DNA of 47,561 nt, from positions 1-47,561 of the forward strand of contig JAKLDH010000006.1 in assembly GCA_022703625.1 (NCBI GenBank), given 5' to 3'. The stretch's first letter is position 1. The number at the start of each line of letters is the position of its first letter. The notes below the pieces were generated by a model. The model was not told the DNA's origin and searched no databases. It was given only the letters and a program-made list of their open reading frames with translations. Positions 16,326-47,561 of this stretch are shown in pieces. The DNA is from Cyanobacteriota bacterium. Lineage in GTDB: Bacteria; Cyanobacteriota; Vampirovibrionia; Gastranaerophilales; UBA9971. The translations under genes were made by a program, and so were the position numbers.

Positions 16326-16334
16326 TGCATTAAT
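16321..16334. repeat. 14-bp palindrome spanning two convergent stop codons
   Basis: ATTAATGCATTAAT is a perfect palindrome that supplies the stop codon of the G-like gene on the + strand (TAA, 16323-16325) and that of the patatin gene on the - strand (TAA, 16332-16330). The stem would be AT-rich with no T-tract, so it is not a convincing terminator. It marks the exact junction of the rightward head block and the leftward second tail module. Confidence 0.6.
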
Positions 16335-29428: not shown

Positions 29429-29743
29429 ATGAAAGATATAAAAGTGCTTTTAGGAAAACGTATAAGAGAGATAAGAAAATCTCAAAATCTCACTCAGGAA
29501 GCTTTAGCTGAGTTAATTGGTGTTGAGTCGCCAAGCATCAGCAATATTGAAAATGGGAAATATTATCCAACAAATGAAAATCTGCAAAAAATTGCCGAGG
29601 TTTTAAAAGTTAAGCCTTATGAATTATACATGTTTGAACATTTAAGACCTGCAGATGAGCTGAAAGATGAAATGTTTCAGGCTTTAGACAACAATGAAAA
29701 ACTTACAAGGCTTATGTATAAATTTTTTGTTACTATTAAATAA
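29429..29743 (+). CDS. XRE-family transcriptional regulator
   Basis: 104 residues. An N-terminal HTH_3 domain (LGKRIREIRKSQNLTQEALA, ELIGVESPSISNIENGKYYP, LQKIAEVLKVKPYELYMFE) is followed by a short helical tail for dimerisation. A TATTAT box ends five bases before the ATG and there is no clear ribosome site, so the mRNA could be leaderless. Located between the phage late region and chromosomal-looking genes, it may be a prophage regulator or a chromosomal one. Its probable operator is at 29377-29393. Confidence 0.85.
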   Translation: MKDIKVLLGKRIREIRKSQNLTQEALAELIGVESPSISNIENGKYYPTNENLQKIAEVLKVKPYELYMFEHLRPADELKDEMFQALDNNEKLTRLMYKFFVTIK

Positions 29744-32774: not shown

Positions 32775-35700
32775 TTGCTAAAAACAAAACGAAAAACATA
32801 CGGTAATACGTGGTGGGGGCAGGAGTTGGTAAATGTCCTGAAAGACATGGATTCTGACAGGCTGTCAAGAGGAAGAAGTCTTGCCAATAGAGGTTTTGTT
32901 GAAAATATCAGAGTTGTAAAAGGTAAAGTTACCGCAAAAGTGGAAAGTTCGGGCAACAGCTATTATTACAGCTACCCTTCTTCCTACAGGGTAAGCATTA
33001 AATTTGATGTATTCACAAAAGATGAAATTATAAGGATAAAACAGATTATTGCTGAGAACTCCTCTATTGCAGTTGAGCTTGGGATGGGTAATTTCCCTGA
33101 AAGCCTTCTGGGTGAACTTAAAAAAGAAAATATTGCACTCTTTCCTGAAAACTGGGAAGAGTTGGAGACAAAATGCACCTGCTATGACTTTGGATATGAA
33201 GATATATGCAAGCACCTTGCAGCTGTATTTTACCTGTTTGCAAATGAAGTAGACAAAGACCCTTTTCTCCTTTTTCAGCTAAAAGGGCTGAAAAAAACGG
33301 ATATGGTGAAAATGGCGGGAGTCAACACTGAATCTGCGCAAATCAAAACAATTTCAATGAGCGATAAATTTATAGAATTTTCCGAGTTAAAGCATAAAAA
33401 AGTTAATATAAATATTGATGATTTTGAATTTTCTTTCCCCAAATATGACATAAAACAGCTTTTATCATTGCTGGCTGAAAATCCGCCGTTTTATAATAGT
33501 GGGAATTTTAAAACTTTTATTGAGAATATCTTCAATTTTACTTCTTTAAAAATTGAAGATGCTTTCCCAGTTCTGCATGAAGAGCCTGAACTTATAAAAA
33601 ATGAATTCCAGCTTGAATATAACCCGGACTGGTATGTCTACCCAACAGGAACAGAATATTCATTTAAAATAATTCCTGACAAAGAAGCATCAGAAAAGGC
33701 AAAACAGGAAATTCTGGAAAAATTACAGGTTGAGAATCCAAAAAAGGTTGAGCTAATAAAATATAACCCGTACGGAAATAGTTTCTTTAATTACAAAATA
33801 AAAACATCACTAAAAAAATATAAAAAAACTGTTGTTTTACTACCCGCTCTTAATAATAAAACAGGCAACCTCAAGCTGGAAGCAAATCATGCCATCTGCC
33901 CTGACATTAATGGGCTGGGTTTTTACTATTTCTTAACAACTTCTGCCACAATTGACTACGATAAAGCCTCAAACAGCTTTGGTTTTCTGAATGTTTTATC
34001 TTCAATGGCTCTGGGATTAGTGAAGGCAAATCTGTTTATCCCTGAATTAGTCGCAGAAAAAAAAGAAAACAACTTTTCTATAAGATATATACCTGTTGTA
34101 AACGACAAGGTACAGGCTCAGATCGATAAATTAAAACAAATAATGCCCCAGCCTATGTGCAACAAAGGCGAGGAATTCCTTTCTGAAGACTCTGTTTTAG
34201 ACCTTTTATCGGCTTTTATAACCTATATAGTTAAAATAATTATTTCCCAGGAAAATAAAGAATATAAAGACAAAATAATATCAGTTTTTGCAATTAACGC
34301 AGTTTTTGAACCTGTTGATTTTAATGAAAAAAATACCCATAAAACCATTTTAAACTGGCTTGAAAAAATTTATATCAGTAAAAAAGAAATAGCTCCCGTA
34401 ATCAGGATTGAAGAGGCAGGCGATGAAAACTTTGGAATTTATGTAGATGTAATCAATAAAAAGAATGCTCTTGATCCGATAATCCCTGTTAATGAACTAT
34501 TCCCAAAGAAAAAATCAGAACAGGGTCATATGTATCTTCCCGAAATTTCAAGACAACTGATCATTGCAGGTCAGTATATGCCGGAATTAAAAACCATAAT
34601 TGACTCAAAAGGCAAGGAAATACCCACTTTGTCCCTAGAGCAAATGGCGCAAATATTAGTATCTACAGCGGGTATATTTGATGTTCTTGGTATTCAGATA
34701 ATCCTGCCTAAAGAGCTTAAAAAACTTGCATATCCATATTTACACGTAAAAGCAAAAGTCAGAAAATCGAATGAAACCGGTGTAGGCTATCTTAATCTTC
34801 ATGAAATGTTGGATTTTTCCTATGAAGTAGCTCTGGGAGACCAGTATATTCCTCTGAAAGACTTCCGCAAACTTGTAAAAGACACACAAGGGTTATTAAA
34901 ATACAAAGATCAGTACTTACTTTTAAAACCTGATGAAGTTAAAAATATTTTAAATAAGCTAAAAGAACCGCCACCGCAAATGTCATCATCAATGCAAGCT
35001 CTTTATACTGCCGTTACAGGTGAATACAAAGGAATAAAATTTGAAGCAGACGAGGCTTTAAAGAAAATTCTCGATGATTTTACTAAAATCGAAGATATTA
35101 CAACCCCTGAAGCCCTTAATGCAACACTGCGACCCTATCAGGAAAGAGGATATAAATGGCTTTATTCTAATGCCAAAAAGGGATTTGGTTCGTGTATAGC
35201 TGATGATATGGGGCTTGGCAAGACAATTCAAGTTATAACCCTTCTTCTGGAATACAAAAAACAAAATAAAACGCAGAAATCAGCTCTTGTAGTCTGTCCT
35301 ACAACACTTATCGGCAACTGGGAAAAAGAATGTCAGAAATTTGCCCCATCGCTTAACCTGAATATTTATCATGGTTCTGAAAGAGAATTAAACACTGAAA
35401 ACATTGATATTTTAATTACAAGTTATGGAACTTTCAGGCGTGATATAGAAAAATTTAATAAAAAAGACTGGAGTTTTCTGATAATAGATGAAGCCCAGAA
35501 TATTAAAAATTCTGAAACCCTGCAAACTAAAGCAGTAAAAGCATTAAAAGCTGATAATTATATAGCGATGACAGGTACGCCGGTTGAAAACAGGTTAACC
35601 GAACTCTGGAACATATTTGATTTTGTGAACAAGGGTTATCTTGGCAGCCTAACTCAATTCAAAACAGAATTATCTTCTCCGATAGAAAAATACAAGGACA

Positions 35701-36521
35701 AAGCAGTAATTGAAAAACTAAAAAAAGCTACGGCACCATTTATTTTAAGGCGATTAAAAACCGATAAAGCAATTATTTCTGATTTGCCGGATAAACTTAC
35801 TTTTGATGAATACTGCTATTTAACAAAGGAACAAGCGGCTGTTTACCAGAATATAGTTGACGATATAATGGGGCAGGTAGAGCATTCCGGTGGTATTCAG
35901 CGAAAAGGTTTAATTTTTAAGTTAATAACCTCGCTAAAGCAGATATGCAACCATCCGGTGCATTTTGCTAAAAAGGGAAATATTGAATCAGAATCCTCTG
36001 GTAAATCCGCCAAAATGCTTACTATCCTCGAAAACATTCTTGACAACAGAGAAAAAGCTATAATATTCACCCAATACAAAGAAATGGGCGATATTCTTCA
36101 GGAGATAATCAAAAAAGAGCTTAAAGAAGAAGCTATATTCTTCCATGGTGGAATTACAAGGACAAAAAGAGATGAAATGGTCAATTCTTTCCAGAATGAC
36201 AGGAAAACAAAGTTGATGATAATTTCCTTAAAAGCCGGCGGAACAGGTTTAAATCTTACAGAAGCATCAAACGTTATTCACTATGACCTGTGGTGGAATC
36301 CAGCCGTTGAAAATCAGGCAACCGACCGAGCATACAGAATAGGTCAGGATAAAAATGTTATGGTTCACAGGCTTATTACTCTTGGAACTTTTGAAGAAAA
36401 GATTGACGAAATAATAAAATCCAAGAAAGAACTTGCTGACCTGACTGTTTCAACAGGTGAAAGCTGGATTACAGAAATGTCTAACAAAGATTTAAGAGAT
36501 ATATTCACGCTTTACAAGTAA
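32775..36521 (+). CDS. SWIM zinc-finger SNF2-family helicase
   Basis: 1248 residues from a TTG start supported by GGGGAG seven bases upstream. The N-terminus (TYGNTWWGQELVNVL) and a SWIM zinc finger near residue 134 (CTCYDFGYEDICKHL, CxC...CxH) are typical of bacterial SWIM-SNF2 proteins. A long middle region precedes the helicase core: DDMGLGKT (about 809), DEAQ (about 905), and a C-terminal lobe with SLKAGGTGLNL and DRAYRIGQ. It is a DNA translocase. Neither a chromosomal repair role nor a link to the CBASS next door is shown, although SNF2 proteins occur in defence islands. Its 3' end overlaps the Cap5 gene by 17 bp. Confidence 0.9.
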   Translation: MLKTKRKTYGNTWWGQELVNVLKDMDSDRLSRGRSLANRGFVENIRVVKGKVTAKVESSGNSYYYSYPSSYRVSIKFDVFTKDEIIRIKQIIAENSSIAVELGMGNFPESLLGELKKENIALFPENWEELETKCTCYDFGYEDICKHLAAVFYLFANEVDKDPFLLFQLKGLKKTDMVKMAGVNTESAQIKTISMSDKFIEFSELKHKKVNINIDDFEFSFPKYDIKQLLSLLAENPPFYNSGNFKTFIENIFNFTSLKIEDAFPVLHEEPELIKNEFQLEYNPDWYVYPTGTEYSFKIIPDKEASEKAKQEILEKLQVENPKKVELIKYNPYGNSFFNYKIKTSLKKYKKTVVLLPALNNKTGNLKLEANHAICPDINGLGFYYFLTTSATIDYDKASNSFGFLNVLSSMALGLVKANLFIPELVAEKKENNFSIRYIPVVNDKVQAQIDKLKQIMPQPMCNKGEEFLSEDSVLDLLSAFITYIVKIIISQENKEYKDKIISVFAINAVFEPVDFNEKNTHKTILNWLEKIYISKKEIAPVIRIEEAGDENFGIYVDVINKKNALDPIIPVNELFPKKKSEQGHMYLPEISRQLIIAGQYMPELKTIIDSKGKEIPTLSLEQMAQILVSTAGIFDVLGIQIILPKELKKLAYPYLHVKAKVRKSNETGVGYLNLHEMLDFSYEVALGDQYIPLKDFRKLVKDTQGLLKYKDQYLLLKPDEVKNILNKLKEPPPQMSSSMQALYTAVTGEYKGIKFEADEALKKILDDFTKIEDITTPEALNATLRPYQERGYKWLYSNAKKGFGSCIADDMGLGKTIQVITLLLEYKKQNKTQKSALVVCPTTLIGNWEKECQKFAPSLNLNIYHGSERELNTENIDILITSYGTFRRDIEKFNKKDWSFLIIDEAQNIKNSETLQTKAVKALKADNYIAMTGTPVENRLTELWNIFDFVNKGYLGSLTQFKTELSSPIEKYKDKAVIEKLKKATAPFILRRLKTDKAIISDLPDKLTFDEYCYLTKEQAAVYQNIVDDIMGQVEHSGGIQRKGLIFKLITSLKQICNHPVHFAKKGNIESESSGKSAKMLTILENILDNREKAIIFTQYKEMGDILQEIIKKELKEEAIFFHGGITRTKRDEMVNSFQNDRKTKLMIISLKAGGTGLNLTEASNVIHYDLWWNPAVENQATDRAYRIGQDKNVMVHRLITLGTFEEKIDEIIKSKKELADLTVSTGESWITEMSNKDLRDIFTLYK

Positions 36522-37656
36522 TGCTTAATGATGGTGTTATGTCAAAAGCATAAACAAATCCGCCACAATCTTTATTTTGGTCATATAATCTAAAAGGCAA
36601 GTCTGCTTTTGACATCCAAATCCGTCCTATTTCAACTGCGACTGCAACAGGAACAGCAGGAAACAGATTAATCATTGTATTTTCGCCGTGAGCAGCTTTT
36701 ATAAGATTCACTAACTTTTTAAATTCGTCTCTAAACAAGGATAACTGCTCACTGCTTTTAAGAAAATCGTTATATGGATTTTCAATTGTCATTGTCCAGA
36801 TAGAAACATCATCTCCTAAAACCTCCTGAATTCTGGAATTATTGATTGTTGCACTCAGGGAAAGATTTAGGGCAACTTTTTGATAAATTTGTCCTGGTTT
36901 TTGGACAATAAATTTGAAATTTTCCGGTGCATTCTGCCATAACCAGTTTTGTGGTTCTCTATGAAGTTGATAAACTTCGGCGGGGTGAATATCCATAAGA
37001 AGTTTGCCTAAATAAATCAGTAAAGGTTGAGGGGCTAAGGCAAAAATAGAGAAATGATTTATATCACCTTTAAGAATCTTAGGTTTTATAAGGTCTTCAT
37101 ACTGTTTAGTAAGATGTTCTTTCTCTATAAGCCAATAATTTTGTGAAGAATCTCTAAAACTGCTGTTTTTCAGGCTTAATTCTATGGCAGGTTTTTCTGC
37201 TGGGTACCAGCTTGGTGACAATGCAGAAATAACCTTATTCCAGTTAACATTAGGATTTTGTTGCCCTATATTTGCACCATACATTAGCACATGACTTTGG
37301 TTTTCAGGAAGTAGCGAAGTTACAAGCTCAATTCTTTGCTCATGTTTTCTCTTCATCTCAAAAAGTCTTTCAGGGGGGTGCCCAGTAACATCGTGTTTAT
37401 CAACAAGCCTGTGGTGTTCATCGCAAAGTAGAATAATATTTGAAATATCCTTACATAATAATTCAGATGATTCCGCATCACCTCTGGGACCGTTTGGGCT
37501 ATCGGCTATTATATGTGAGTGATAAGCAATATTAAATTCATTTTTAGTTAAATCGTCTATCCACAAGGGTTTATTACAGCCTTCATACTGGCATCTGCCT
37601 GCCGATTTGCCCCAAAGTAGCATTCTTATATTTGTTGGGATTTCTGAATTCGACAT
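36505..37656 (-). CDS. cap5: Cap5 effector: HNH endonuclease-SAVED fusion
   Basis: 383 residues. The N-terminal HNH domain has Cys22/Cys27 (CQYEGC), His46/His48 (HSHIIA) and Cys78/His81-His82 (LCDEHHRLVDKH). The remaining part is a SAVED domain (about 160-380) with the FSIFALAPQPLLIYLGKLL strand-helix. In characterised type II-short CBASS the SAVED domain binds the cyclic nucleotide from the CD-NTase and the HNH domain then degrades DNA. The gene follows the E2 gene by 10 bp with an AAAGGA site. The catalytic His and zinc ligands look intact, so the effector should be active. Confidence 0.9.
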   Translation of the reverse strand: MSNSEIPTNIRMLLWGKSAGRCQYEGCNKPLWIDDLTKNEFNIAYHSHIIADSPNGPRGDAESSELLCKDISNIILLCDEHHRLVDKHDVTGHPPERLFEMKRKHEQRIELVTSLLPENQSHVLMYGANIGQQNPNVNWNKVISALSPSWYPAEKPAIELSLKNSSFRDSSQNYWLIEKEHLTKQYEDLIKPKILKGDINHFSIFALAPQPLLIYLGKLLMDIHPAEVYQLHREPQNWLWQNAPENFKFIVQKPGQIYQKVALNLSLSATINNSRIQEVLGDDVSIWTMTIENPYNDFLKSSEQLSLFRDEFKKLVNLIKAAHGENTMINLFPAVPVAVAVEIGRIWMSKADLPFRLYDQNKDCGGFVYAFDITPSLSITCKA

Positions 37657-37666
37657 ATATATTCCT

Positions 37667-38323
37667 TTATAAATTAAAAATAATTACAAGATCTTTTCTA
37701 AAATCGAAGTTTGAATCTTTCATTTTTATTAAAATGTCACCATGACAGTTGCGTAGTCTCTTGCCACTTCCACATGGGCAGTCGTGATGCCCCCTAAACT
37801 TAGTGAAAGCAAGAAAACCTAATAATTTAATAACTTCATCATCCGATTCAACTTGAAATTTTTCTTTATAATACTGAAAAATCCCTTCTGTGCCGTGAGC
37901 AAGTTCGCCGTAAGGCATTTCCCCAAATTTTTGCTTGTGGCAAAACGAGTAAAGAAAAGGGACAACAAGATTTTTTATAAAGCCAAATAATGTGGGCTGC
38001 TTTTTAAACTTGTCTTGTACCTCAAAATTAGCACCCAGACAAAATTTTCCGATAGAAGTATAAATATGATTGTCCATACTTAATGGTATCCGTCCCCCTG
38101 TCTCTTTTACTACCGGTAATTTGTCAGGGTAATCAGCAGGAATTTCTATTTCAATGCTAAAAGTGTCCTGAATTTGATTTTTGTTATCATAGACAGCATC
38201 AAAACTTAAATTGCCTCTGATAATGCAGGTGCCCTCCTCTTCTTTTTTTTTTATAAAAAGGTCTGGACAATTTTCCTTCACTTCCGTAAATTCGGATATT
38301 ATTCTTGAAAAATTTTCTACCAT
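37667..38323 (-). CDS. CBASS E2-like (UBC fold) protein with C-terminal CPCGSGK motif
   Basis: 218 residues from the ATG at 38323, which overlaps the CD-NTase stop; the frame extends to a TTG four codons earlier. The E2-like fold is seen in IEIEIPADYPDKLP and the catalytic segment NHIYTSIGKFCLG, with the presumed catalytic Cys95. No E1 or JAB gene is present, so this is the type II-short arrangement, in which an E2 alone modifies the CD-NTase or its partner. The last 40 residues carry HDCPCGSGKRLRNCHG, a SEC-C-like zinc motif that may bind protein or metal. That appendage is the unusual part. Confidence 0.85.
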   Translation of the reverse strand: MVENFSRIISEFTEVKENCPDLFIKKKEEEGTCIIRGNLSFDAVYDNKNQIQDTFSIEIEIPADYPDKLPVVKETGGRIPLSMDNHIYTSIGKFCLGANFEVQDKFKKQPTLFGFIKNLVVPFLYSFCHKQKFGEMPYGELAHGTEGIFQYYKEKFQVESDDEVIKLLGFLAFTKFRGHHDCPCGSGKRLRNCHGDILIKMKDSNFDFRKDLVIIFNL

Positions 38324-39543
38324 TCTGGGCACCAAGGTTTTGCCGGAAGCTCAGACTTTATTATATTAACCTGAAGAGGTTTACTGTGATTTGAAGCAAC
38401 TATAGAGCCTAAAATATCTGAACCTTTTACTGCTTCATTAATAACTCGCTCACCTATACAGCCTTCAAAGGTTTTTTGTAAAATTTGTGGGTTAGTCTGG
38501 TTTAAAATGTCCAATAAATCTTCCCTCAACCATGAAACCCAGTGGAAAAATGCTTTAGCCCGGGCGTGATTATCTTCGTGCCAATATTCAGCAAAATTTT
38601 CTTGCGGGTTCACAGGGTTTAAAATTTCCCATTTATCTCCCCTGCGGGTTATAAGGTTCCGTTCAGCCAGAGCTTCATCAATAACATACCTAAGTTCAAG
38701 CAGGCTTGAATGGGTCTGCAGTTTTTCTGTTATATTTTTAAGCGCAGTGTATGTATCTTCTTCCTGTTCGTAAAGATGTGCTGCCAAAGTGGTAATTATT
38801 ATTGATATAGGCTTATTTTCTTCATTTGGCTGCCCTGCAAATCTTAAATCCCTGTGACGTTTTAAAATCTGTATAGCTCTTTGTAAAGGAGTTTTAACCC
38901 TATAATCAGGCACCTCATCAATGGAGTTATAAATTCCCTGATTCATTCTGCTCTCAAATATAGTCTGCTTCTGTGCTTTCGCTATCCGCTCAAAAGCAAT
39001 CTTTTTTCTCTCGTCAAACCATTGTGCATAACCTCTCGGATTACTTGAAAGCCAGGAATATTGACTATCCTCTGATTTATGAGTGATAGCAATAGGTTCG
39101 TTAGGCAGAGATGAAATTTCCTGCGCCGATGGAAGAATGTCCATATGAAAACCAACACCGTCTTCCTCTGCATATTCTAATGTCCAACAACGTTTTCCTT
39201 CACCATCCATTAGCTTCTTGTACATTTCATTCTCTGCTAATCTGCTGCCTACCGTCTGTTTTAGGTCTTTTGCATCCATTTGAGCCATATCCAGTGGCAA
39301 TTCACAGACTAAATCCAAATCATAACTCGCTTCTTTCGCTTTTTTAATAGGTCTAACAACTGTACCCAGTCTGATAGAACCTTGTGGATAAATTTCCGTT
39401 CCATCGCATAAGCCATCTTGAAGCCATTTGCCGACATCTCCATATCTTTTAACAGCCTGTCGAAATTTTGACTCGGGAATGTCCAATGCATTTGAAATTC
39501 CCTCAAGTAACCTGTTGTATTGTTGTTCTTTTTGATTTAGCAA
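38317..39543 (-). CDS. CBASS CD-NTase (cyclic oligonucleotide synthase)
   Basis: 408 residues from a TTG start with AGGAGG placed eight bases upstream. The nucleotidyltransferase core has GSIRLGTVVRP (Gly55-Ser56), DLD (Asp75, Asp77) and a third acid, Asp135 (HMDILPS), so the catalytic triad is intact. Similarity to clade D/G CD-NTases is inferred from the YPQGSIRLGTVVRP/YDLDLVCELP pattern; the product (a cyclic di- or trinucleotide) is unknown. The C-terminus ends PAKPWCPEW rather than in the terminal Gly familiar from E1-E2 type II systems. The stop overlaps the E2 start, so the two are co-translated. Confidence 0.88.
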   Translation of the reverse strand: MLNQKEQQYNRLLEGISNALDIPESKFRQAVKRYGDVGKWLQDGLCDGTEIYPQGSIRLGTVVRPIKKAKEASYDLDLVCELPLDMAQMDAKDLKQTVGSRLAENEMYKKLMDGEGKRCWTLEYAEEDGVGFHMDILPSAQEISSLPNEPIAITHKSEDSQYSWLSSNPRGYAQWFDERKKIAFERIAKAQKQTIFESRMNQGIYNSIDEVPDYRVKTPLQRAIQILKRHRDLRFAGQPNEENKPISIIITTLAAHLYEQEEDTYTALKNITEKLQTHSSLLELRYVIDEALAERNLITRRGDKWEILNPVNPQENFAEYWHEDNHARAKAFFHWVSWLREDLLDILNQTNPQILQKTFEGCIGERVINEAVKGSDILGSIVASNHSKPLQVNIIKSELPAKPWCPEW

Positions 39544-39664
39544 GGTCTTCTCCTCCTACTTAACACTTCACCTATTTTATAACATGTGGTAACATAATTA
39601 TGTGACCATGATTTTATGGTAACATATGTTTGTGACATCTGCAACCCATGTTTAGGAAAATATT
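39544..39664. promoter_or_regulatory. CBASS/capH divergent promoter with tandem dyad operators
   Basis: Two related 22-bp dyads lie between the divergent operons: one at 39587-39608 (TGGTAACATAA/TTATGTGACCA, one mismatch in the dyad) and one at 39617-39638 (the TGGTAACATA half is identical, the second half TGTGACA is weaker). They start exactly 30 bp apart, nearly three helical turns. This is the layout expected for cooperative dimer binding by the adjacent XRE repressor, shutting off both CBASS and its own gene. Confidence 0.7.
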
Positions 39665-39976
39665 ATGGAAAAAAAAGAGAACGCTTTAGGTTTAAGGATT
39701 CAGGAACTCCGAAAAGAAAAAGAATTATCTCAGGCAGACCTTGCTAAAAAAGCAAAAATAGCGAGGACATTAATAACTATGATTGAATCAGGACAAAGAT
39801 ATCCCTCTGAAGACGCATTAGATAAAATAATAGAAGCACTGGACGTTTCCAAAGAGGATGTGTTTACTGAAGAAGTAAAAAAGCAGTATCGTGAAAAGCT
39901 CGATACTTATTTGGAAAATGCAAACGCAGAAACTATAATCAAAGCCTACAGGAAGATTTCGCAAGATGACAAGTAA
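39665..39976 (+). CDS. capH: CapH-like XRE repressor
   Basis: 103 residues. HTH_3 domain (LGLRIQELRKEKELSQADLA, KKAKIARTLITMIESGQRYP, DALDKIIEALDVSKEDVF) and a short C-terminal helical part. It overlaps the peptidase gene by 11 bp. The pair XRE-ImmA/IrrE divergent from a CBASS operon matches the CapH/CapP regulatory pair, in which CapH represses CBASS and is cut by CapP when ssDNA accumulates. The CBASS link is from adjacency and the operators in between; the ssDNA trigger is family knowledge. Confidence 0.8.
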   Translation: MEKKENALGLRIQELRKEKELSQADLAKKAKIARTLITMIESGQRYPSEDALDKIIEALDVSKEDVFTEEVKKQYREKLDTYLENANAETIIKAYRKISQDDK

Positions 39977-40856
39977 TCCTTATTTTTTCAGAGACCAGAA
40001 TATTATTAATCACAGCAATAAATTATTGATTGAAACCGTTGGTACAGATGATCTTCCTATTAATGTTTTTGACATTCCTGAGTATTTAGACATAAATTTT
40101 GAATTTACTTCTGAAAAATTTAAGAGTGCTAAGGAATTAGGGTTAACAGAAATAATAAATGACAAGTTTTATATATACCTTAATGCAAATGTTTTTGGGA
40201 ATTCTATAGAGGAAGCTAAAAAAGACACAACACAGTGGAGAAGATGCAGATTTACACTTGCGCATGAACTTGGTCACTGTTTTTTGCCAAATCATATAGA
40301 CGTCAATATTCAGAAAAATTTTCAGGAAGATTCTGTCAATTCTTTAAAAAATTCATATTTAAAGCAAAAAGAAGTAGAAGCTGACGGTTTTGCCTCAGAA
40401 TTATTAATCCCCTCAAAAACCGTTAATAAAAGTTTTCTGGATGATAGCAAAAATCTTTTTAAAAATGCAAAAATATTAAGCGAAACTTATGATGTCTCAT
40501 TGCAGGTTGCAATAATGCAGTTAATTTCCTTAAGCACCGCCAATATTTGTGTCTGTGTGTTTAGCAGCCCTTATAACGGTAAAATTATTTCCTACAAGCC
40601 TGCAGACAGCTTTAGATATTATGGTAACGGTGCAAGAATTGAAGTCAAAACTGAAGTTCCACAGAATTCAATCGCTAAAAAACTTTTAAATGGCGACTTG
40701 CGTCAGGAAGGCATTCCGAATACGCTAGATATTTATTATTGGTTCCCTGAATTTAGGGGAAGCGATGAAGCAAAATTAACAGAATGCTCTGTTCACTTCA
40801 ATCACTATATACTTACTTATTTGGAAATAACTGATACAAGCATATATGGGTACTAA
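39966..40856 (+). CDS. capP: CapP-like ImmA/IrrE metallopeptidase
   Basis: 296 residues. The zinc peptidase motif HELGH (His100, Glu101, His104) and the downstream EADGFASELLIP (Glu138) match the ImmA/IrrE/CapP family, in which three ligands bind zinc. The C-terminal half (about 200-296) is a separate domain that in relatives senses the trigger. It is coupled to the repressor gene and should act as the derepression switch for the CBASS operon. Confidence 0.85.
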   Translation: MTSNPYFFRDQNIINHSNKLLIETVGTDDLPINVFDIPEYLDINFEFTSEKFKSAKELGLTEIINDKFYIYLNANVFGNSIEEAKKDTTQWRRCRFTLAHELGHCFLPNHIDVNIQKNFQEDSVNSLKNSYLKQKEVEADGFASELLIPSKTVNKSFLDDSKNLFKNAKILSETYDVSLQVAIMQLISLSTANICVCVFSSPYNGKIISYKPADSFRYYGNGARIEVKTEVPQNSIAKKLLNGDLRQEGIPNTLDIYYWFPEFRGSDEAKLTECSVHFNHYILTYLEITDTSIYGY

Positions 40857-40897
40857 AAATCAGCTCATAGTTCCTGATATTTCATCTCAAACTAACT

Positions 40898-40931
40898 GTC
40901 TCTTTACAGAGCGGGTTTTTTATTTTTTATG
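40898..40931 (+). terminator. Possible weak terminator after capP
   Basis: CTCT-TTAC-AGAG (40900-40911) forms a 4-bp stem, followed by GCGGG and a T-rich stretch (40916-40929) downstream of the peptidase gene. The stem is short, so this is only a plausible rho-independent terminator. Confidence 0.35.
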
Positions 40932-40975
40932 AAATAATTAAAATATGAAAAATAAAAATTTAAAAGGCTGAAGGG

Positions 40976-41278
40976 ATGATACCTCAAACTATAAATCAAT
41001 GGAATCTTAATATAATAAGAGAATTATTAGTAAAATGATATTATGAATCGGAATTATTTGACTTTAAAGAAATGTTACCCGGGTCAAAAGATGATCCTAA
41101 AAAAGAAAGATTGAAAAAACGTGTTGCGCCTTTGCCAATAATAATGCGCAATATTATATTAATTTACAAAATGATACTGATATATATTTCTCAAAAGTTT
41201 TTTGTTATTCTCTCCATCAATTAATGATAATAATGGTTTTAAATATTTTTCGCTTGCATATTGAATATTCATAAGAAG
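40976..41278 (+). pseudogene. Decayed AlbA_2/Schlafen-AAA4-type regulator remnant
   Basis: From an ATG at 40976 the frame reads MIPQTINQWNLNIIRELLVK, then a stop (41036-41038), then YYESELFDFKEMLPG, GSKDDPKKERLKK; a +1 shift near 41120 continues with CCAFANNNAQ. The conserved ESExFDFK and VCAFAN elements are those of AlbA_2 (divergent AAA_4) proteins. One stop, one frameshift and loss of similarity beyond about 41160 show decay. The 40857-41372 gap holds nothing else I can support. Such domains are common in defence islands. Confidence 0.6.
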
Positions 41279-41372
41279 TTTACCATTTTCTTACACATAA
41301 ACATTATGCGCTATCTAATTATAAATTTCTTTCCAATTTTCTTAAATTTCTAGGTATAATTGCAACTTAGGA

Positions 41373-41960
41373 TTAAATACTTACTGGTTCAGGTATTTTA
41401 AACGTATTTTCTTTTTCTTTTAAATTCAATCTGTTATAAATATCTTTAAGCTTTTCAACTACAAATTTCGGATCGCTACATGCCCATTGAACTGCTTTTG
41501 CCGCTTCCTGAGGAGAGATTACTCCGTTATAAACTTCTATGCAATCCTGAAAAATTAACCAGGCAAGGAATTTGCCTTTCGTAATCTTGCCGCTGGGATC
41601 AATCTGGTCGATTATACGCCCGCAAGGTCCTGCTTCCAGCGTTGATATTGCGCCGTCGTTATCTTTATCGAGAGAGTTTATATAAACGCCCGCAAATGCA
41701 AGTCCATACTCAATGTCCATCTCGCCTGTTTCCTCGCTGACTTCCAGGTAAGGAATATAAGCTGTCGCAAGAGTTTCAAGAGCAGTGTTTTTAAGAACAT
41801 TATCAGGCGTTAAATTTCCCTGAAGAAATTTTTTAGTGTTTTCTTCGGCAATTTTACGACCTTCATTAATGTATTTTATAACATTAGCCGCCGCATTAGC
41901 GCCTCTGCCTTCAGGCGTTTCAGAATTATAATCGCCGCATAAATTGTTAATCAATAACAT
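41373..41960 (-). CDS. EF-hand calcium-binding protein, possible type I secretion substrate
   Basis: 195 residues. A canonical EF-hand loop DKDNDGAISTLE (98-109, Asp/Asn/Asp at 1, 3, 5 and Glu at 12) is followed by a degenerate second loop starting DPSGKITKGK (121). The rest is helical with no signal peptide and no membrane helix. The lack of a Sec signal and the neighbouring type I exporter make export by that system possible. The C-terminus (TFKIPEPVSI) is not an RTX repeat region, so this remains inference. Confidence 0.6.
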   Translation of the reverse strand: MLLINNLCGDYNSETPEGRGANAAANVIKYINEGRKIAEENTKKFLQGNLTPDNVLKNTALETLATAYIPYLEVSEETGEMDIEYGLAFAGVYINSLDKDNDGAISTLEAGPCGRIIDQIDPSGKITKGKFLAWLIFQDCIEVYNGVISPQEAAKAVQWACSDPKFVVEKLKDIYNRLNLKEKENTFKIPEPVSI

Positions 41961-42262
41961 ACCCTTTATTCTCCTCTCCCGAAAATTAATACCTTATTCA
42001 CCTCTGTAAGTTTATAAAAACAATCAACAGGGCTTTATTGCTACCTAAAGAGTATATAGTTTCTATACCAATCCAAATAAGTTTTCGTTATACCACTTTG
42101 CGGTAATAATTTCGAATTTATACTATAAACGAATTGTGGTATTGCGAAGCGGGAGTGTTTTTTCTGGAAAATCCGGCTTTGCCGGTTTTAAAGATTTATA
42201 AAAACTGCTTTTTTCATTTGTCGATTTCTTTCAATGATTGGCATAAGAAATTTTTTGTAAAA
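41961..42262. repeat. Gap holding MITE-like repeat copy 1 and a short hairpin
   Basis: The 302-bp gap contains the diverged repeat copy 42063-42246 (right boundary ATTGGCATAA, left CTATACCAAT). It also holds a hairpin CCGGC-TTT-GCCGG flanked by A and T runs (42168-42189), which could end transcription of the secretion operon whose last gene stops at 42263. ORFs crossing this region have no homology I recognise. Confidence 0.5.
42063..42246. mobile_element. MITE-like repeat, copy 1
   Basis: A short non-coding element with imperfect terminal inverted repeats (CTATACCAAT and ATTGGCATAA). It shares a 27-bp identical block (42064-42090) and other similar patches with the element at 47195-47420. 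It has no transposase. The internal part has another dyad, TACCAC...GTGGTA. Confidence 0.5.
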
Positions 42263-43603
42263 TTATCTAACGCTTATTCCTTCTTGATAATATTTAATAA
42301 GCGGATATATGAAGAATTCGATAATGCGGCGTTTTCCGGTTTTAATTTCCGCAACTAAAGACATGCCGGGCTCAATCGCTTTTTCTTCTCCGTCAACTTT
42401 TAAAAACTTCTGCAAAGGCTCAATTTTTACTTCATATACCAGACCCATTTCTTCATCCTCAATGCTATCTCTGCCAACAACAATTACTTTTCCGTCAATG
42501 ATCCCGTATTTTTGAAAACTGAACGTATCAATCTTTACAGAAACAGGCATGTCTTTTTCGACAAACCCTATGTCCTTGTTAAGCACTTTGGCGGAAACAA
42601 CAAGCGGTTCGTTTTCCGGAACTATAGAAATAAGCTCCTGAGCAGGTTTTACAACCCCGCCTATGGTGTTCATTATTATTTTATTTACATATCCGTTTAC
42701 CGGAGATTTTATTGCCTGTTTTTTGTTAACAAATTCCCGCTGTTTAAAACTTGCGTCAAGATCGGTTATTTTTTTCTGCGTTTCGGTAAGTTGTTCGAGA
42801 AGATTATTTTTAAATCTCGAGGTAATATAAGAAATTTCCTGTTGGGTCTGCTTTTTTTGAATTTTTAATTCTTCTATTTTATGTTCAAGTTCCATTTTTT
42901 TTGCTGTATAAGAATGATTGTCGTTAACAGAATCTTCATAGTTGCTTTTTGGTATAATATCAAGCACTTTTTCCAGACGTTGCTGTTTGTCGAGCCCGCT
43001 ATCCAGAATTTCTGACGTTTTCTCGCGCTGTACCTGAAGACTTTGCATTTGTTCTTTAATTAAATTAAAATTCTCTTTTTTCGTTGAAAGCTCGTCATTA
43101 TGATTTTGTATGGCAGACCTGTAAATGCTTTGCTGCATTTCTATTTCTATCGGAGAATATTTGGTTGAATCCGGCATAAAAGGCTTACCCGCAATCATGC
43201 TCTTGATTCTTTCTTCTTCCAGCCTTAAAGTGGTAAGGTTTTTGCCTACAGCTTCTGCGGCGGATTCGGTAATTGAGGGGTCAATTTCCATTAAAATCTC
43301 GCCTTGTTTTACATAATCGCCTTCCTGAACTTTAAGCGCGTTTATTACGCCGCTGTCAATGGATTGGATAATTTTAACCTGCCCGGTCGGAATAATTTTC
43401 CCTCTTGCGGTGATTACAATGTCTATTTCGCCAAAAATCAGCCAGAAAACAGTAAAAACCATTGCCCCGATAATTATCCAAAACATGCTTCTGCCAAGAG
43501 GACTAACAGGCTCATCAACGATTTCAACAAGCAACGGCTTAAATTCGTGGCTGTCGTCATCTCTTTTAAATAATTTTTTTATTATATTTTTTATTTTTTG
43601 CAT
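42263..43603 (-). CDS. hlyD: HlyD-family type I secretion membrane fusion protein
   Basis: 446 residues. A short cytoplasmic N-terminus, one membrane helix (MFWIIIGAMVFTVFWLIF), then a lipoyl-type segment (GQVKIIQSIDSGVINALKVQ, EGDYVKQGEILMEIDP), a long coiled coil (residues about 130-290) and a C-terminal beta-barrel domain with VNKIIMNTIGGVVKPAQELI and GMSLVAEIKTGKRRIIEFF. It links the ABC protein in the inner membrane to TolC. It is the third gene of the operon tolC-hlyB-hlyD, 18 bp after the hlyB stop. Confidence 0.93.
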   Translation of the reverse strand: MQKIKNIIKKLFKRDDDSHEFKPLLVEIVDEPVSPLGRSMFWIIIGAMVFTVFWLIFGEIDIVITARGKIIPTGQVKIIQSIDSGVINALKVQEGDYVKQGEILMEIDPSITESAAEAVGKNLTTLRLEEERIKSMIAGKPFMPDSTKYSPIEIEMQQSIYRSAIQNHNDELSTKKENFNLIKEQMQSLQVQREKTSEILDSGLDKQQRLEKVLDIIPKSNYEDSVNDNHSYTAKKMELEHKIEELKIQKKQTQQEISYITSRFKNNLLEQLTETQKKITDLDASFKQREFVNKKQAIKSPVNGYVNKIIMNTIGGVVKPAQELISIVPENEPLVVSAKVLNKDIGFVEKDMPVSVKIDTFSFQKYGIIDGKVIVVGRDSIEDEEMGLVYEVKIEPLQKFLKVDGEEKAIEPGMSLVAEIKTGKRRIIEFFIYPLIKYYQEGISVR

Positions 43604-43621
43604 GAAATGTATTTCTCCGTC

Positions 43622-45787
43622 TTATTTGCAATTAGCAAGCATTTCCTGCTGCTGATGCATTTTGAAATAAAACCCTTTTTTCTCAATGAGTTCATCATGT
43701 GAACCGATTTCCACTATTTCTCCTTTTTCAAACACGACTATCATATCGCATGACCTTATTGTAGAAAGCCTGTGAGCAATCACAACCATTGTTCTGCCCT
43801 GTTTAATAGTATTAATGTTAGATTGAATAATTCTTTCAGACTCATAATCCAGCGCAGAAGTTGCTTCGTCGAACACAAGAATTCTTGGATTGGTAATTAT
43901 TGCCCTTGCAATTGCAATACGCTGACATTGTCCGCCGGAAAGCGTTGAGCCTCTTTCTCCGACAATTGTTTCATATCCATCCGGAAATTGAGAAATAAAC
44001 TCGTGCGCTCCTGCCATTTGAGCGGCTCTGATGATTGTTTCCGTGGAAGCGTCAGGGCGAGCCATTGAAATATTTTCTTTAATTGTGCCTGAAAACAGGT
44101 AGTTTTCCTGCAAAACAACGCCTATACTATATCTAAGCCAGATTGGATTTATATTTCTTATGTCAACATTGTCAATATAAATTGTGCCTTCTGTAGGGAT
44201 GTATAGTCTTTGTATAAGCTTTGCGATCGTGCTTTTGCCGCTGCCGCTCCTGCCTACAAGCCCAACGCTCATCCCTGATTTTACATGCAGATTGATGTTT
44301 TTCAGAACCATTGGAGCTGAAACTCCATATTTAAAGCTTAAACCCTCTATTCTAATATCCCCTTTAACCTCAGGCAAGGTTATTGCTTTTGAAGTTTGGA
44401 CTTCTACCGGTGAATTAAGGATATCAGCTATTTTGTCAACGCCTATAAGAACTTGTTGAAACTCGTTCCATAAACCAACAAGCCTTAAAATCGGTCCGGT
44501 AAATTGATTAGCAAACATTTGAAAAGCAATCAACTGACCTATTGTCAATTTTCCCTCTATAACCAGTTGCACTCCAAAAAACAAAATTGATATTGTCATT
44601 CCCCTGTTAATTGTCGTTGACAACGCCCCCGTAAAATTAGACAAAACCCCCATGCTGAAATTGGAAGTTACATATTTGGCAAGATTATCTTCCCATTTTT
44701 TCTGCATACTTCCTTCTATCGCAAGGGATTTTACTGTTTGAACTCCTGTTATAGACTCCACAAGGTAGGATTGAGAATTTGCGCCCATTTGAAATTTTTT
44801 CTCGAGCCGATCTCTAAGCTCCGGCGTGATGAGCAAATATATAATCGCAATGGTTAAAACAAATCCCAGCACTACAAACGTCAACATTTTGCTGTATAAA
44901 AACATTACGGCAACAAAAACAAACGAAAAGAACAAATCAACGGTAACTGAAATTGATTTTGTGGTGATAAAATTTCTTATGCCGTCAAGTTCACGGATTC
45001 TTGCGACGATATTACCGACTTTTCTTGATTCAAAATAGCTAAAAGGCAAAGCAAACAGGTGATTAAATATTTTTGCTCCCAATTTTGAGTCAAGTTTGCT
45101 GGCTGTATGAAGAAAAATATATTTTCTTACAATGTTTAAAGCAAATTCAAAGATAATTAAAGCCAAAAAGGCTACTGTTAAAACATATAAAGTGGACAAG
45201 CTTCTGTGAACAATGACTTTATCAAGAATTACCTGCGTAAAAAGCGGCGTAACAAGAGCAAACAGTTGAATTACAAAAGAACCGATCAATACCTCAACGA
45301 TAACCTGTTTAAATTTTAAAATCTCGACAAAAAACCATTTAAAGCCGAATTTAACATGTTCATCTATAAATTTATGATTCATTACAATAAATTTGCCTGA
45401 AGACATTTCTTCAAACTGTTCAAAAGTAAATTCCTGCGTTTGATTAGACTGTTTAGGCAATAAAACAAAAAGTTTTTGCTTTTCCTCAAAATATTTTAAA
45501 ACCAAGCCGTAAGTTCCGTCTTTCAGCGCAAACATTGCAGGAAGAGGATATTTTTGTATTTTTTCCAGCGGCATTTCTTTTATTTTTGCTTTAAAACCAC
45601 GATCTTTAGCGATTTTTATTAATTCTTCCGGCGTAGGCTCTTGTTGCACGGCATATTCTCTTGCGATGCTGATTGTATCAACGTTCATCCTGTTAAATTT
45701 GGCGAGCGCGTCAAAACAGATCAGCCCTGTAATTAGATTTTTTTCTTTTATTGCGTTTATTTCCTGAGTATTATTTAATTCCTGCAT
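43622..45787 (-). CDS. hlyB: HlyB-type ABC transporter with degenerate C39-like domain
   Basis: 721 residues from the ATG at 45787; a longer frame to 45826 lacks a ribosome site. Residues 1-140 are a C39-like domain in which the expected catalytic Cys (position of ITGLICFDAL) and His (DGTYGLVLKY) are lost, so it should recognise but not cleave substrate, as in HlyB. A six-helix transmembrane region follows, then the ATPase: GRSGSGKST (Walker A), LSGGQCQRIAIARA (signature) and VFDEATSALD (Walker B). It powers export. The single Cys in the signature (GGQCQ) is unusual but not disabling. Confidence 0.92.
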   Translation of the reverse strand: MQELNNTQEINAIKEKNLITGLICFDALAKFNRMNVDTISIAREYAVQQEPTPEELIKIAKDRGFKAKIKEMPLEKIQKYPLPAMFALKDGTYGLVLKYFEEKQKLFVLLPKQSNQTQEFTFEQFEEMSSGKFIVMNHKFIDEHVKFGFKWFFVEILKFKQVIVEVLIGSFVIQLFALVTPLFTQVILDKVIVHRSLSTLYVLTVAFLALIIFEFALNIVRKYIFLHTASKLDSKLGAKIFNHLFALPFSYFESRKVGNIVARIRELDGIRNFITTKSISVTVDLFFSFVFVAVMFLYSKMLTFVVLGFVLTIAIIYLLITPELRDRLEKKFQMGANSQSYLVESITGVQTVKSLAIEGSMQKKWEDNLAKYVTSNFSMGVLSNFTGALSTTINRGMTISILFFGVQLVIEGKLTIGQLIAFQMFANQFTGPILRLVGLWNEFQQVLIGVDKIADILNSPVEVQTSKAITLPEVKGDIRIEGLSFKYGVSAPMVLKNINLHVKSGMSVGLVGRSGSGKSTIAKLIQRLYIPTEGTIYIDNVDIRNINPIWLRYSIGVVLQENYLFSGTIKENISMARPDASTETIIRAAQMAGAHEFISQFPDGYETIVGERGSTLSGGQCQRIAIARAIITNPRILVFDEATSALDYESERIIQSNINTIKQGRTMVVIAHRLSTIRSCDMIVVFEKGEIVEIGSHDELIEKKGFYFKMHQQQEMLANCK

Positions 45788-45788
45788 T

Positions 45789-47114
45789 TTATATTCTTTC
45801 CAAACAGTTGTCTTCAAATATATCAAGTTTTATACTAGCCGAAACGTATTTTATATAGCTTAATTCGGTTTCCAGTTTTTGTTTAACAAAGTCAGCTTCG
45901 GTGCTAAGGTATTCCTCTTTGCCTATAAGCTGTTCCTGGTCAAGTCTTTTTATCATATCAAATTTTTCCCGGAAAAGTCCTAATGTTTTTTGTTGTATTT
46001 CATATTCGGTTCTGTAGCCTTGCCATTCGGACTTTATGCTGTTATATTGAGCCATTAATTCATGCAAAACGTGTTGTTTTTCGCATTCAATTTTTTCCAG
46101 TTCAAGTTTCATGCGTTTTCTTTGCGCCATATTTTTAAACCCGTCAAAAAGCGGCATATTAATTGAAAAACCGGCGCCGAAACTGCTTTGCGTTAAATCG
46201 CTCACCGCTTTAAACATTCCTGTACGGTCTGAACCATAGAAGTAATAATCAGAGTAAACGGACACTTTAGGCAATACTTCACGCCTTTTGATAGACAATT
46301 CACGGGCTTTATTGGTTAAATCGACCTGATAAATTTTATTTTCGGGAGTATAATCCAAAATTAACGCATGCGCCTCGTCAGTGTTTGCGGCGTCAACAAA
46401 AAAACCGCCAAAATCATCCGGCTCAAAGGAATTTGCGTCGTATTCCTCATAAGTAAAACCCGATAATTTATCAAGAGCTTGTTTCATTCTGATATTGGCG
46501 AGTTTAATGCGGTCTTCCGCTCTTGCGATATTGACCGCTTCGTCCATAACATTAAGCTTTGAGCTTTGTCCGGCGACGAACAAACGTTCTTTTGTTGTAA
46601 AAAGCTCTTCATATAAAGCGATAAGTACTGTATAACACTGTTTTTCTTTATAGGCGCTGATTATTTCAGAATACAGACCAATTATTTGTTCCGAGAGTTC
46701 ACGACGCATTCTTTTATAAATTGCGGCTTCTTTTTCAATGTCAGATTTTGACATGGCGTATTTTTTGCCTCTAACTCCGAAATCGAAGAGGTTATACTGC
46801 GCTCTGAATCTTAAAACATTTTTATATAGCGTATTTGAGCTAATCAAAGTATCGCCGACAATTTGATTTTGTCCGGTTTCGTCTTTTAAGTTTTTTGTAT
46901 ACTGGTTGTCATAAACGACGCTTAGCGTTGGAAAATATTCAGAGCGGACTTCTTTGGAAATTTGCGCTCTGAGTTTTATGTTGTAATCAGCCGCTTTAAG
47001 CTGAAAAGAATTATTTACAGACTGATCGAGTATATCGTTAAAATTATATTTTTTGGCGTAAGCGGAGGCATTAAATACCAAAATTACAGCCAAAGCCAAA
47101 ATTATTTTTAACAC
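45789..47114 (-). CDS. tolC: TolC-like outer membrane efflux protein
   Basis: 441 residues from a GTG start; a GAGGAG ribosome site is 12 nt upstream. A Sec signal peptide (MLKIILALAVILVFNASAYA) is followed by the repeated helix-strand arrangement of the TolC family (two similar halves, second starting around VYSDYYFYGSDRTG). It forms the outer membrane channel of the type I system. It is the first gene of the operon; hlyB starts just after it. No lipobox is present. Confidence 0.88.
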   Translation of the reverse strand: MLKIILALAVILVFNASAYAKKYNFNDILDQSVNNSFQLKAADYNIKLRAQISKEVRSEYFPTLSVVYDNQYTKNLKDETGQNQIVGDTLISSNTLYKNVLRFRAQYNLFDFGVRGKKYAMSKSDIEKEAAIYKRMRRELSEQIIGLYSEIISAYKEKQCYTVLIALYEELFTTKERLFVAGQSSKLNVMDEAVNIARAEDRIKLANIRMKQALDKLSGFTYEEYDANSFEPDDFGGFFVDAANTDEAHALILDYTPENKIYQVDLTNKARELSIKRREVLPKVSVYSDYYFYGSDRTGMFKAVSDLTQSSFGAGFSINMPLFDGFKNMAQRKRMKLELEKIECEKQHVLHELMAQYNSIKSEWQGYRTEYEIQQKTLGLFREKFDMIKRLDQEQLIGKEEYLSTEADFVKQKLETELSYIKYVSASIKLDIFEDNCLERI

Positions 47115-47194
47115 GCTTATATATATCTCCTCGCCGAATTTATGTTTATATATTAAATTAAATTAATTTAATATACAATAATTTGAAAAATTTG
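47115..47194 (-). promoter_or_regulatory. Promoter region of the secretion operon with AT-rich dyad
   Basis: Upstream of tolC, TATTAAATT (47151-47159) and AATTTAATA (47165-47173) make a perfect 9-bp dyad with a 5-nt loop. It could be an operator or a DNA bend; no -35/-10 pair is clear in this AT-rich stretch. Confidence 0.35.
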
Positions 47195-47420
47195 TTTTAT
47201 ACCAATCCAAATAAGTTTTCGTTAATTTGTTAAAAAGCTAATATCTACTGCCCGCGCCTCCCTACAGGCGGCGCGGGCAGAGTAAGGGTATTGCGGGTGT
47301 TTTGTAGCACAAGCGGGTGTTTTAACTCATTCATGCGCCGAAGGCAAAACACCCGCAAATTAAGGATTTACAAAAATCACCTTTTTTATTTGCCGATTTA
47401 TTTTATTAATTGGTATAAAA
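47195..47420. mobile_element. MITE-like repeat, copy 2
   Basis: 226 bp with perfect 12-bp terminal inverted repeats (TTTTATACCAAT at 47195-47206 and ATTGGTATAAAA at 47409-47420). Inside are an 11-bp GC stem (CTGCCCGCGCC 47248-47258 with GGCGCGGGCAG 47270-47280) and the direct copies GCGGGTGTTTT at 47293-47303 and 47313-47323, which can both pair with AAAACACCCGC at 47346-47356. It has no coding capacity. The left 27 bp are identical to copy 1. Confidence 0.6.
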
Positions 47421-47441
47421 TCACTATACCTGCAAAATTTA

Positions 47442-47476
47442 AAAGGGGCTGTCCCAAAAGAATGGACAGCTCCTTT
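47442..47476. repeat. IS1182-like terminal hairpin
   Basis: AAAGGGGCTGTCC (47442-47454) is followed after 9 nt by GGACAGCTCCTTT (47464-47476), a 13-bp stem with one G-T wobble. GGGGCTGTCCCAAAAG is similar to IS1182-family left ends, consistent with the transposase start 57 bp downstream. Confidence 0.5.
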
Positions 47477-47532
47477 AAATTTTGGTAAAATAATTATACT
47501 GAAAGCATTGTAAACAGGGGAGCTAAGCCGGC

Positions 47533-47561
47533 ATGAACAAGAAAGTTGTTTTTAAATACTA
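47533..47561 (+). CDS. Start of an IS1182-like transposase (partial)
   Basis: Only MNKKVVFKY is in the window. A GGGGAG lies about ten bases upstream. Several IS1182-family transposases start with a ...VFKxYxxNQ motif, and an IS1182-like terminal repeat precedes it. Assigned from the combination of the two; the fragment alone is not diagnostic. Confidence 0.45.

What the first reader, a model, noticed from the sequence alone, without database searches (positions are those of the whole stretch)
39544..40856. CapH/CapP-type control of CBASS with two operators 30 bp apart
The repressor and HExxH peptidase genes diverge from the CBASS operon across a 121-bp region holding two dyads with identical TGGTAACATA halves, spaced exactly 30 bp apart. 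The weaker second half of the right-hand site suggests graded binding.
Basis: partly seen in the sequence, partly recalled or inferred. Interest (0 to 1): 0.5.

Follow-up and report, generated by a model that had tools for sequence, protein, structure and literature searches.

The report
CapH-CapP switch controlling a CBASS operon
A bacterium carries a known kind of DNA-damage switch (a repressor plus the enzyme that is expected to cut it) in front of an anti-phage suicide system, with two matching DNA docking sites between them; it is a new member of a known system, and the two sites share the same core rather than being one strong and one weak.

Summary
A 121-bp gap separates a short CBASS operon (CD-NTase, E2-like, HNH-SAVED; minus strand) from a divergent, overlapping capH-capP pair, and holds two dyads with identical TGGTAACATA left halves 30 bp apart. 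CapP matches Thauera CapP (7t5t) by sequence and predicted fold (Z 21.7, 237 residues). The core GTNACA-N6-TGTNAC occurs twice in the window (0.01 expected) and nowhere else in the 2.5-Mb assembly. A like core (N7) lies, in three overlapping dyads, before capH in three close relatives that keep the CapH recognition helix (ARTxIxMIE) but face a GIY-YIG gene, not CBASS; a fourth relative with another helix lacks it. This ties the sites to CapH, though the patterns were written from these loci. Not supported: 'weaker second half, graded binding'. GTAACA and TGTGAC are the same in both sites, and the differing outer bases (AT) are those of the relatives. The 30-bp spacing is not general: 28 bp in the relatives, 18-59 bp elsewhere, and several CBASS loci show no pair. 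Most likely CapH represses CBASS (and itself) and CapP cuts CapH upon ssDNA. New member of a known kind.

The parts
36505..37656 (-). HNH-SAVED nuclease effector of the CBASS operon (Cap5-like by recalled naming)
   Evidence: PADLOC effector endonuclease E 7.6e-158, SAVED_HNH 4e-142; Pfam SAVED 1.6e-49
37667..38335 (-). E2-like protein with C-terminal SEC-C motif
   Evidence: PADLOC E2 1.5e-75; Pfam SEC-C 9.4e-5
38317..39543 (-). CD-NTase (DncV-like cyclase), TTG start, first gene of the CBASS operon
   Evidence: PADLOC Cyclase 6.3e-117; Pfam DncV-like NTase 2.2e-7
39550..39557 (-). ribosome-binding site AGGAGGAG of the CD-NTase gene
   Evidence: read from the sequence
39576..39584 (-). candidate extended -10 (TGTTATAAA) of a CBASS promoter whose -35/spacer region lies under operator 1
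   Evidence: TGNTATAA[AT] occurs 15 times on both strands of the window, once in this gap; a motif match, not proof
39544..39664 (.). 121-bp divergent regulatory region
39587..39608 (.). operator 1, TGGTAACATAATTATGTGACCA, core 39589-39606
   Evidence: 10 of 11 arm pairs; core found only at the two operators in the assembly
39617..39638 (.). operator 2, TGGTAACATATGTTTGTGACAT, core 39619-39636
   Evidence: 6 of 11 arm pairs but same core halves
39654..39657 (+). ribosome-binding site AGGA of capH
   Evidence: read from the sequence
39665..39976 (+). capH, 103-aa HTH_3 repressor
   Evidence: PADLOC capH 2.6e-10 (third; HTH_VI 1.2e-12 and Control_protein 1.8e-11 score better); HTH_3 3.9e-14; 47-51% identical to CapH of L012, L013, L015
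39966..40856 (+). capP, 296-aa M78 (ImmA/IrrE-type) metallopeptidase, HELGH at residues 100-104
   Evidence: PADLOC capP 1.3e-30; Peptidase_M78 9.4e-10; 7t5t by sequence and fold

Best explanation
The locus is a CapH-CapP module controlling a short CBASS operon. CapH dimers sit on the two dyads in the 121-bp gap. Operator 1 lies over the -35/spacer region of a likely CBASS promoter with an extended -10 at 39584-39576; operator 2 lies where capH transcription should start, so CapH would hold down both CBASS and itself. When DNA damage or phage infection raises ssDNA, CapP is activated, cuts CapH, and CBASS is expressed. Shown here: gene identities, dyads, an operator core shared with relatives that keep the CapH recognition helix. 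Inferred: binding, promoter positions, cleavage, ssDNA trigger, which rest on published CapH-CapP work on other loci.
For: CapP's best PADLOC hit is capP (1.3e-30, residues 17-283), CapH hits capH (2.6e-10), CBASS genes strong. 7t5t (Thauera K11 CapP) is the only PDB sequence hit at E 0.01 (6.4e-5; profile 2.5e-10) and the top fold hit (Foldseek 4.7e-11; Z 21.7, 237 residues, 3.0 A). Core pattern found only at the two dyads in the genome. A like core (spacer 7 instead of 6) occurs three times, in overlapping dyads, in the capH upstream regions of three relatives (L013; L014 and L015, which share the array letter for letter). N5-8 pattern in 5,000 shuffles each of the gaps of window, L013 and L015: at least one hit in 14, 19 and 11, two hits in none. 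In 383 genomes of the order a three-half-site pattern hits 7; 4 of these are exactly the 4 of the 383 with full-length CapP, each at capH; the other 3 genomes have no CapH/CapP similarity in the short stretches fetched. CapH helix ARTLITMIE is kept as ARTVIPMIE where the core is kept, and is SKALITHIE in L012 where it is absent. Same divergent layout in nine CBASS plasmids. CapH-CapP mechanism from passages of PMC13373217, PMC10233336, PMC10904395, PMC12255303.
Against: No binding, cleavage or expression data exist here. The PADLOC capP model is not specific: 87 of 386 phylum genomes match it at 1e-10, B. subtilis among the controls, and a 175-aa M78 protein in this same genome scores slightly better (8.4e-32 against 5.6e-30), though over model positions 5-154 only. 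The consensus promoter scan finds no more hits than shuffles (6 found, mean 6.6), and no convincing capH promoter. The three relatives with the core are few and close to each other, and the patterns were written from them and the window, so searches are not independent. L012, also a full-length capHP of this order, lacks the core. The reversed control also hits 7 genomes, so hits outside the capHP loci are at chance level. The helix-operator link is not clean elsewhere: L151 and L188 have the helix PPSSIAHFE of L185 but not its strict dyad. Spacer between halves is 6 in the window and 7 in the relatives. The original CapH-CapP paper (Lau et al. 2022) is not held, so its operator data could not be compared.
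Confidence: 0.82

Rival explanations
1. The two sites differ in strength, giving ordered (graded) occupancy: operator 1 fills first, operator 2 later, so CBASS is shut before capH.
For: Dyad 1 pairs 10 of 11, dyad 2 6 of 11 over 11-bp arms.
Against: Both sites carry the same core halves GTAACA and TGTGAC; the differing outer bases match the relatives' flanks. Affinity cannot be read from symmetry alone, so this is not excluded.
Confidence: 0.2
2. The dyads belong to another regulator, for example a host CRP-type protein (TGTGA half-sites) or LexA, and CapH binds elsewhere.
For: TGTGAC resembles a CRP-type half-site (recalled). CapH binding was not measured.
Against: The half-sites face the other way from a CRP site (GTNACA..TGTNAC; CRP consensus recalled); the core is at no other place in the 2.5-Mb genome, unlike a global regulator's; the 4 of 383 genomes with full-length CapP carry it at capH.
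Confidence: 0.07
3. CapH binds the two dyads cooperatively as a tetramer, like C.Esp1396I on its operators, rather than as two separate dimers (a variant of the best explanation).
For: CapH model resembles controller proteins; best Foldseek hit is C.Esp1396I on operator DNA (E 8.1e-4). Relatives have three overlapping dyads made of four half-sites.
Against: Centre spacing is 30 bp here and 28 bp in relatives, so the helical phase is not kept; 18-59 bp in other loci. The hit reflects a common HTH fold.
Confidence: 0.35

Closest known systems
CapH-CapP of Thauera sp. K11 plasmid pTX1 (L184) and of an E. coli NucC-type CBASS plasmid (L191)
   Same: Divergent HTH repressor plus M78 peptidase facing a CBASS operon; CapP fold (7t5t).
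   Different: Those CBASS operons are cyclase, a hypothetical protein or Cap7, an AAA ATPase or Cap6, and NucC; here a CD-NTase/E2/HNH-SAVED operon. Their CapH helices differ (SKSYLWELE) and no dyad pair above shuffles was seen there.
CapHP modules of the MAG contigs L013, L014, L015
   Same: CapH 50-51%, CapP 38-41% identical (L013, L015); kindred operator core before capH.
   Different: They face a lone GIY-YIG gene beside a tyrosine recombinase, not CBASS; spacer 7, three overlapping dyads, 28 bp between the outer ones.
ImmR-ImmA of ICEBs1/TnSmu1 and DdrO-IrrE/PprI
   Same: Repressor cut by an M78-type peptidase (passages, PMC10233336); PprI fold Z 17.9; ssDNA sensing by PprI (passages, PMC10904395).
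   Different: Other targets (element excision, DNA repair); lower fold similarity than 7t5t.
CapW/BrxR and CapK-CapS
   Same: DNA-damage-responsive control of defence operons (passages of PMC13373217).
   Different: WYL repressor or kinase/STAS pair; no such domain among the Pfam hits of the seven window proteins scanned.

Membership tests
CapH-CapP module | HTH repressor gene followed by an M78 peptidase gene, divergent from the defence operon | tested here: met
   same layout in nine CBASS plasmids
CapH-CapP module | CapP profile, HExxH and CapP fold | tested here: met
   PADLOC capP 1.3e-30 (the model is not specific); HELGH and E136 invariant in 8 rows (the role of E136 as third metal ligand is recalled); 7t5t Z 21.7 over 237 residues
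CapH-CapP module | CapH profile | tested here: met
   PADLOC capH 2.6e-10, but HTH_VI (1.2e-12) and Control_protein (1.8e-11) score better
CapH-CapP module | CapH binds the promoter region of the adjacent operon | tested here: inconclusive
   shared core and helix in three close relatives, both changed in L012; no binding test
CapH-CapP module | ssDNA-stimulated cleavage of CapH by CapP | not testable with these tools
   needs purified proteins
CBASS (type II short, E2 only; type name recalled) | CD-NTase plus effector with ligand sensor, plus E2-like protein | tested here: met
   Cyclase, E2, SAVED_HNH profiles; the operon's three genes are followed by a convergent SNF2 helicase gene, so no E1 or JAB gene in the operon
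CBASS (type II short, E2 only; type name recalled) | phage defence | not testable with these tools
   no assay
ICE ImmR-ImmA | the repressor faces integrative-element genes | tested here: not met
   the divergent operon is CBASS; by eye none of the 14 ORFs of at least 80 aa at 34000-47561 is an integrase or conjugation gene; a prophage lies further left (605-29743, by eye)

The most novel reading that the evidence does not exclude
One CapH operator class (GTNACA-N6/7-TGTNAC, CapH helix ARTxIxMIE) serves a CBASS operon in one bacterium and a lone GIY-YIG gene beside a tyrosine recombinase in others of its order. The module, with its operators, would then move between mobile elements and immune operons, so an incoming element's CapH or CapP could silence or trigger a resident CBASS.
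Probability: 0.2. Interest if true: 0.55.

Novelty: new member of a known kind. Interest (0 to 1): 0.3.

Why it matters
It gives a concrete, testable operator for one CapH lineage and a hint of how the operator changes with the recognition helix. It places CapH-CapP control of CBASS in a Gastranaerophilales-type bacterium (order inferred); two searches of the held library (Melainabacteria with CBASS; Gastranaerophilales with 'phage defense') found no paper. The biology is otherwise that of known CapH-CapP systems.

Tried and rejected
Graded binding from a 'weaker' half: not supported as stated, because the core halves are the same.

A fixed 30-bp geometry: rejected. A dyad-pair score over 18 capHP upstream gaps (60 shuffles each) was reached by at most 3 of 60 shuffles in 8 (window 0, L012 2, L152 0, L153 0, L186 3, L189 0, L190 1, L192 3) and by more in 10 (L013 10, L015 38, L018 60, L151 10, L184 57, L185 18, L187 8, L188 54, L191 36, L193 60). 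The spacings of the best pairs in the first 8 are 30, 32, 18, 18, 54, 59, 48 and 56. The score uses an even 20-bp frame and is blind to the odd-length dyads of L013 and L015. Counts of 1-3 in 60 over 18 loci are weak evidence. L014 (same array as L015), L016, L017 and L040 were left out; L016 and L040 were looked at.

Loci not followed: of the 50 genome-contig loci, 8 have a protein similar to the window's CapH (L012-L018, L040); most of the other 42 were not studied further. The 77 viral loci and the further matches (87 of 386 genomes) were not examined. Of the plasmid hits (11, 9, 69) I opened 13 regions; one, L190, faces hypothetical genes, not CBASS.

A regulon elsewhere in the genome: none by the strict N6 core; the N7 form hits one other place, C80, at the level of the control (two).

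Paired cores in viral contigs: 12 stretches, two of them on one contig, none with CapH or CapP similarity; unrelated.

First genome-contig scan with one sequence found no relative; no phage record matched CapP; no E. coli match to the Shewanella capHP DNA. The CapP gene search found 5 of 382 class genomes, own included; the profile 9 of 383 order genomes, own included, 4 of them full length.

The fold comparison of CapH gives only general HTH relatives and was not used for membership.

Full report
What is there. The window is a 47,561-base contig of a 2.5-Mb assembly. Of the four CapP relatives nearest to it in genome contigs, two are titled Candidatus Gastranaerophilales (L012, L013) and two 'uncultured bacterium isolate RUG...' (L014, L015; a rumen series, recalled). 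On the minus strand lie a CD-NTase (38317-39543, TTG start), an E2-like protein with a SEC-C motif (37667-38335) and an HNH-SAVED nuclease (36505-37656), all with strong CBASS profile matches. On the plus strand, across 121 bp, lie capH (39665-39976) and capP (39966-40856), overlapping by 11 bp.

CapH and CapP. CapP's best PADLOC model is capP (1.3e-30), with Peptidase_M78 in Pfam. That model is not specific to CapP: 87 of 386 genomes of the phylum match it at 1e-10, B. subtilis rings among the controls, and a 175-aa M78 protein in this genome scores slightly better over positions 5-154. More telling, the only PDB sequence match at E 0.01 is 7t5t, Thauera CapP, and the model made from an 8-row alignment (mean pLDDT 83) matches 7t5t best: Foldseek 4.7e-11, Z 21.7 over 237 residues at 3.0 A, ahead of PprI and IrrE (Z 17.3-17.9). 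CapH is a small HTH_3 protein with the PADLOC capH model in third place; its fold hits are general HTH regulators.

The dyads. TGGTAACATA occurs twice in the window, both in the gap, starts 30 bp apart. Over 11-bp arms the left dyad pairs 10 of 11 and the right 6 of 11. The core that both share in full is GTNACA-N6-TGTNAC: two matches in the window against 0.01 expected, and no other place in the whole assembly; the reversed control pattern counts two there. None of 60 shuffles reaches the dyad-pair score. The pattern was chosen after seeing the sequence.

Relatives. The three relatives L013, L014 and L015 (CapP 38-41%, CapH 50-51% identical for L013 and L015; L014 and L015 carry the same array letter for letter) carry a like core with N7 three times, in overlapping dyads before capH; the outer two are 28 bp apart. 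What they face is not CBASS but a 105-106-aa GIY-YIG protein (Pfam 1.6e-5) beside a tyrosine recombinase. L012, whose CapP is 43% identical, has another recognition helix (SKALITHIE in place of ARTLITMIE), lacks the core, and has two other dyads 32 bp apart. In 383 genomes of the order a three-half-site pattern hits 7 genomes; four are just the four of the 383 with full-length CapP, at capH; the other three have no CapH or CapP similarity in the short stretches fetched, and the reversed control also hits 7 genomes. Because the pattern came from these loci, this is a consistency check, not an independent test; still, helix and operator change together here, which is what binding by CapH predicts.

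Other capHP loci. Divergent HTH/M78 pairs facing CBASS were read in plasmids of Acinetobacter baumannii, Shewanella, Enterobacter, Thauera, Burkholderia, Sinorhizobium, E. coli, Polaromonas and Mesorhizobium, facing multiubiquitin/ThiF operons in Cupriavidus, Jiella and Rhizobium, and hypothetical genes in Acinetobacter indicus. A second dyad class, TGWCG-N4-type, was found by a pattern written after in L185, L186, L187 and L190 (helices PPSSIAHFE, PASSIAHFE, QPSAISHFE, PSTSISHLE), paired 48 bp apart in L187 and L190, but not in L151 or L188, which have PPSSIAHFE, nor in L189 or L193 with similar helices. So helix and operator are not linked as cleanly there. The loci nearest the studied systems, L184 (Thauera K11) and L191 (E. 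coli), show no pair above shuffles. Paired operators thus recur but are not general, and their spacing varies.

Graded binding. The claim rested on poorer symmetry of the right-hand dyad. Both dyads have GTAACA and TGTGAC; they differ in the middle and in the outermost bases of the right arm (CA against AT), and the relatives' sites end in AT too. Nothing in sequence says that the second site is weaker. Another reading is positional: operator 1 lies beside an extended -10 (TGTTATAAA, 39584-39576, minus strand), the only such match in the gap among 15 in the window, and operator 2 lies towards capH. A second candidate for the CBASS promoter, ATGTCA-16-TAAAAT (39638-39611), also lies in the operators, but the scan as a whole finds no more than shuffles. 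In L013 and L015 candidate promoters in both directions overlap the operator array. Promoters remain inferred.

Mechanism. From passages of held papers: CapP is activated by ssDNA and cleaves CapH, derepressing the adjacent operon (PMC13373217; PMC10233336; PMC10904395); CapH is derepressed by proteolysis by CapP (PMC12255303); CapW or CapH-CapP genes are associated with 219 of 544 Bub operons (PMC13373217), and capP-capH lie upstream of a B. cereus CBASS operon (PMC11153139). The primary paper (Lau et al. 2022) is cited there but not held; I saw none of it, so whether paired CapH operators are already described cannot be said. A held-library search for CapH, CapP and 'inverted repeat' found no paper.

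Verdict. A real and well-formed CapH-CapP-controlled CBASS locus, a new member of a known kind, with a well-located operator pair. The added value is the operator core, its link to the CapH helix, and its reuse in mobile-element-like loci.

Noticed in passing
window 605-29743: ORFs that by eye read as tail, capsid, terminase and portal genes of a prophage, with a patatin-like phospholipase gene (16330-17349, Pfam Patatin 4.4e-29) beside an amidase-like gene (17328-17822, by eye); a CBASS-effector-like enzyme in a prophage, not far from a CBASS operon.
   Followed up: partly
window 29429-29743: A second small HTH gene, 35% identical to CapH over residues 7-75, at the right end of the prophage; the core pattern does not occur there.
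   Followed up: no
window 32775-36521: A 1,248-aa SNF2/SWIM helicase gene whose 3' end overlaps that of the CBASS effector by 17 bp, convergently.
   Followed up: no
G000:C138:1688-2152 (L155): Another M78-type peptidase (open frame 175 aa) in the same genome, matching the capP model at 8.4e-32 over positions 5-154.
   Followed up: no
L031 1577-6582; L033 1567-6585: CBASS operons (CD-NTase, E2, HNH-SAVED) in Roseobacter and Roseovarius facing an M78 peptidase that is preceded by a 185-aa protein that by eye reads like a sigma factor and a 136-138-aa protein instead of CapH: perhaps another way of controlling CBASS.
   Followed up: no
L012 2461-4896; L018 4249-6759: capHP pairs facing a 311/338-aa protein whose starts look alike by eye (no Pfam match for the L012 one) and a small ORF: a candidate unnamed defence operon.
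   Followed up: no
L194, L196, L197, L200, L202-L204: Viral contigs with pairs (three in L203) of GTNACA..TGTNAC dyads 30-31 bp apart beside genes that by eye read like a VRR-NUC nuclease, a SNF2-type helicase and a large replication-type protein; no CapH or CapP similarity.
   Followed up: partly
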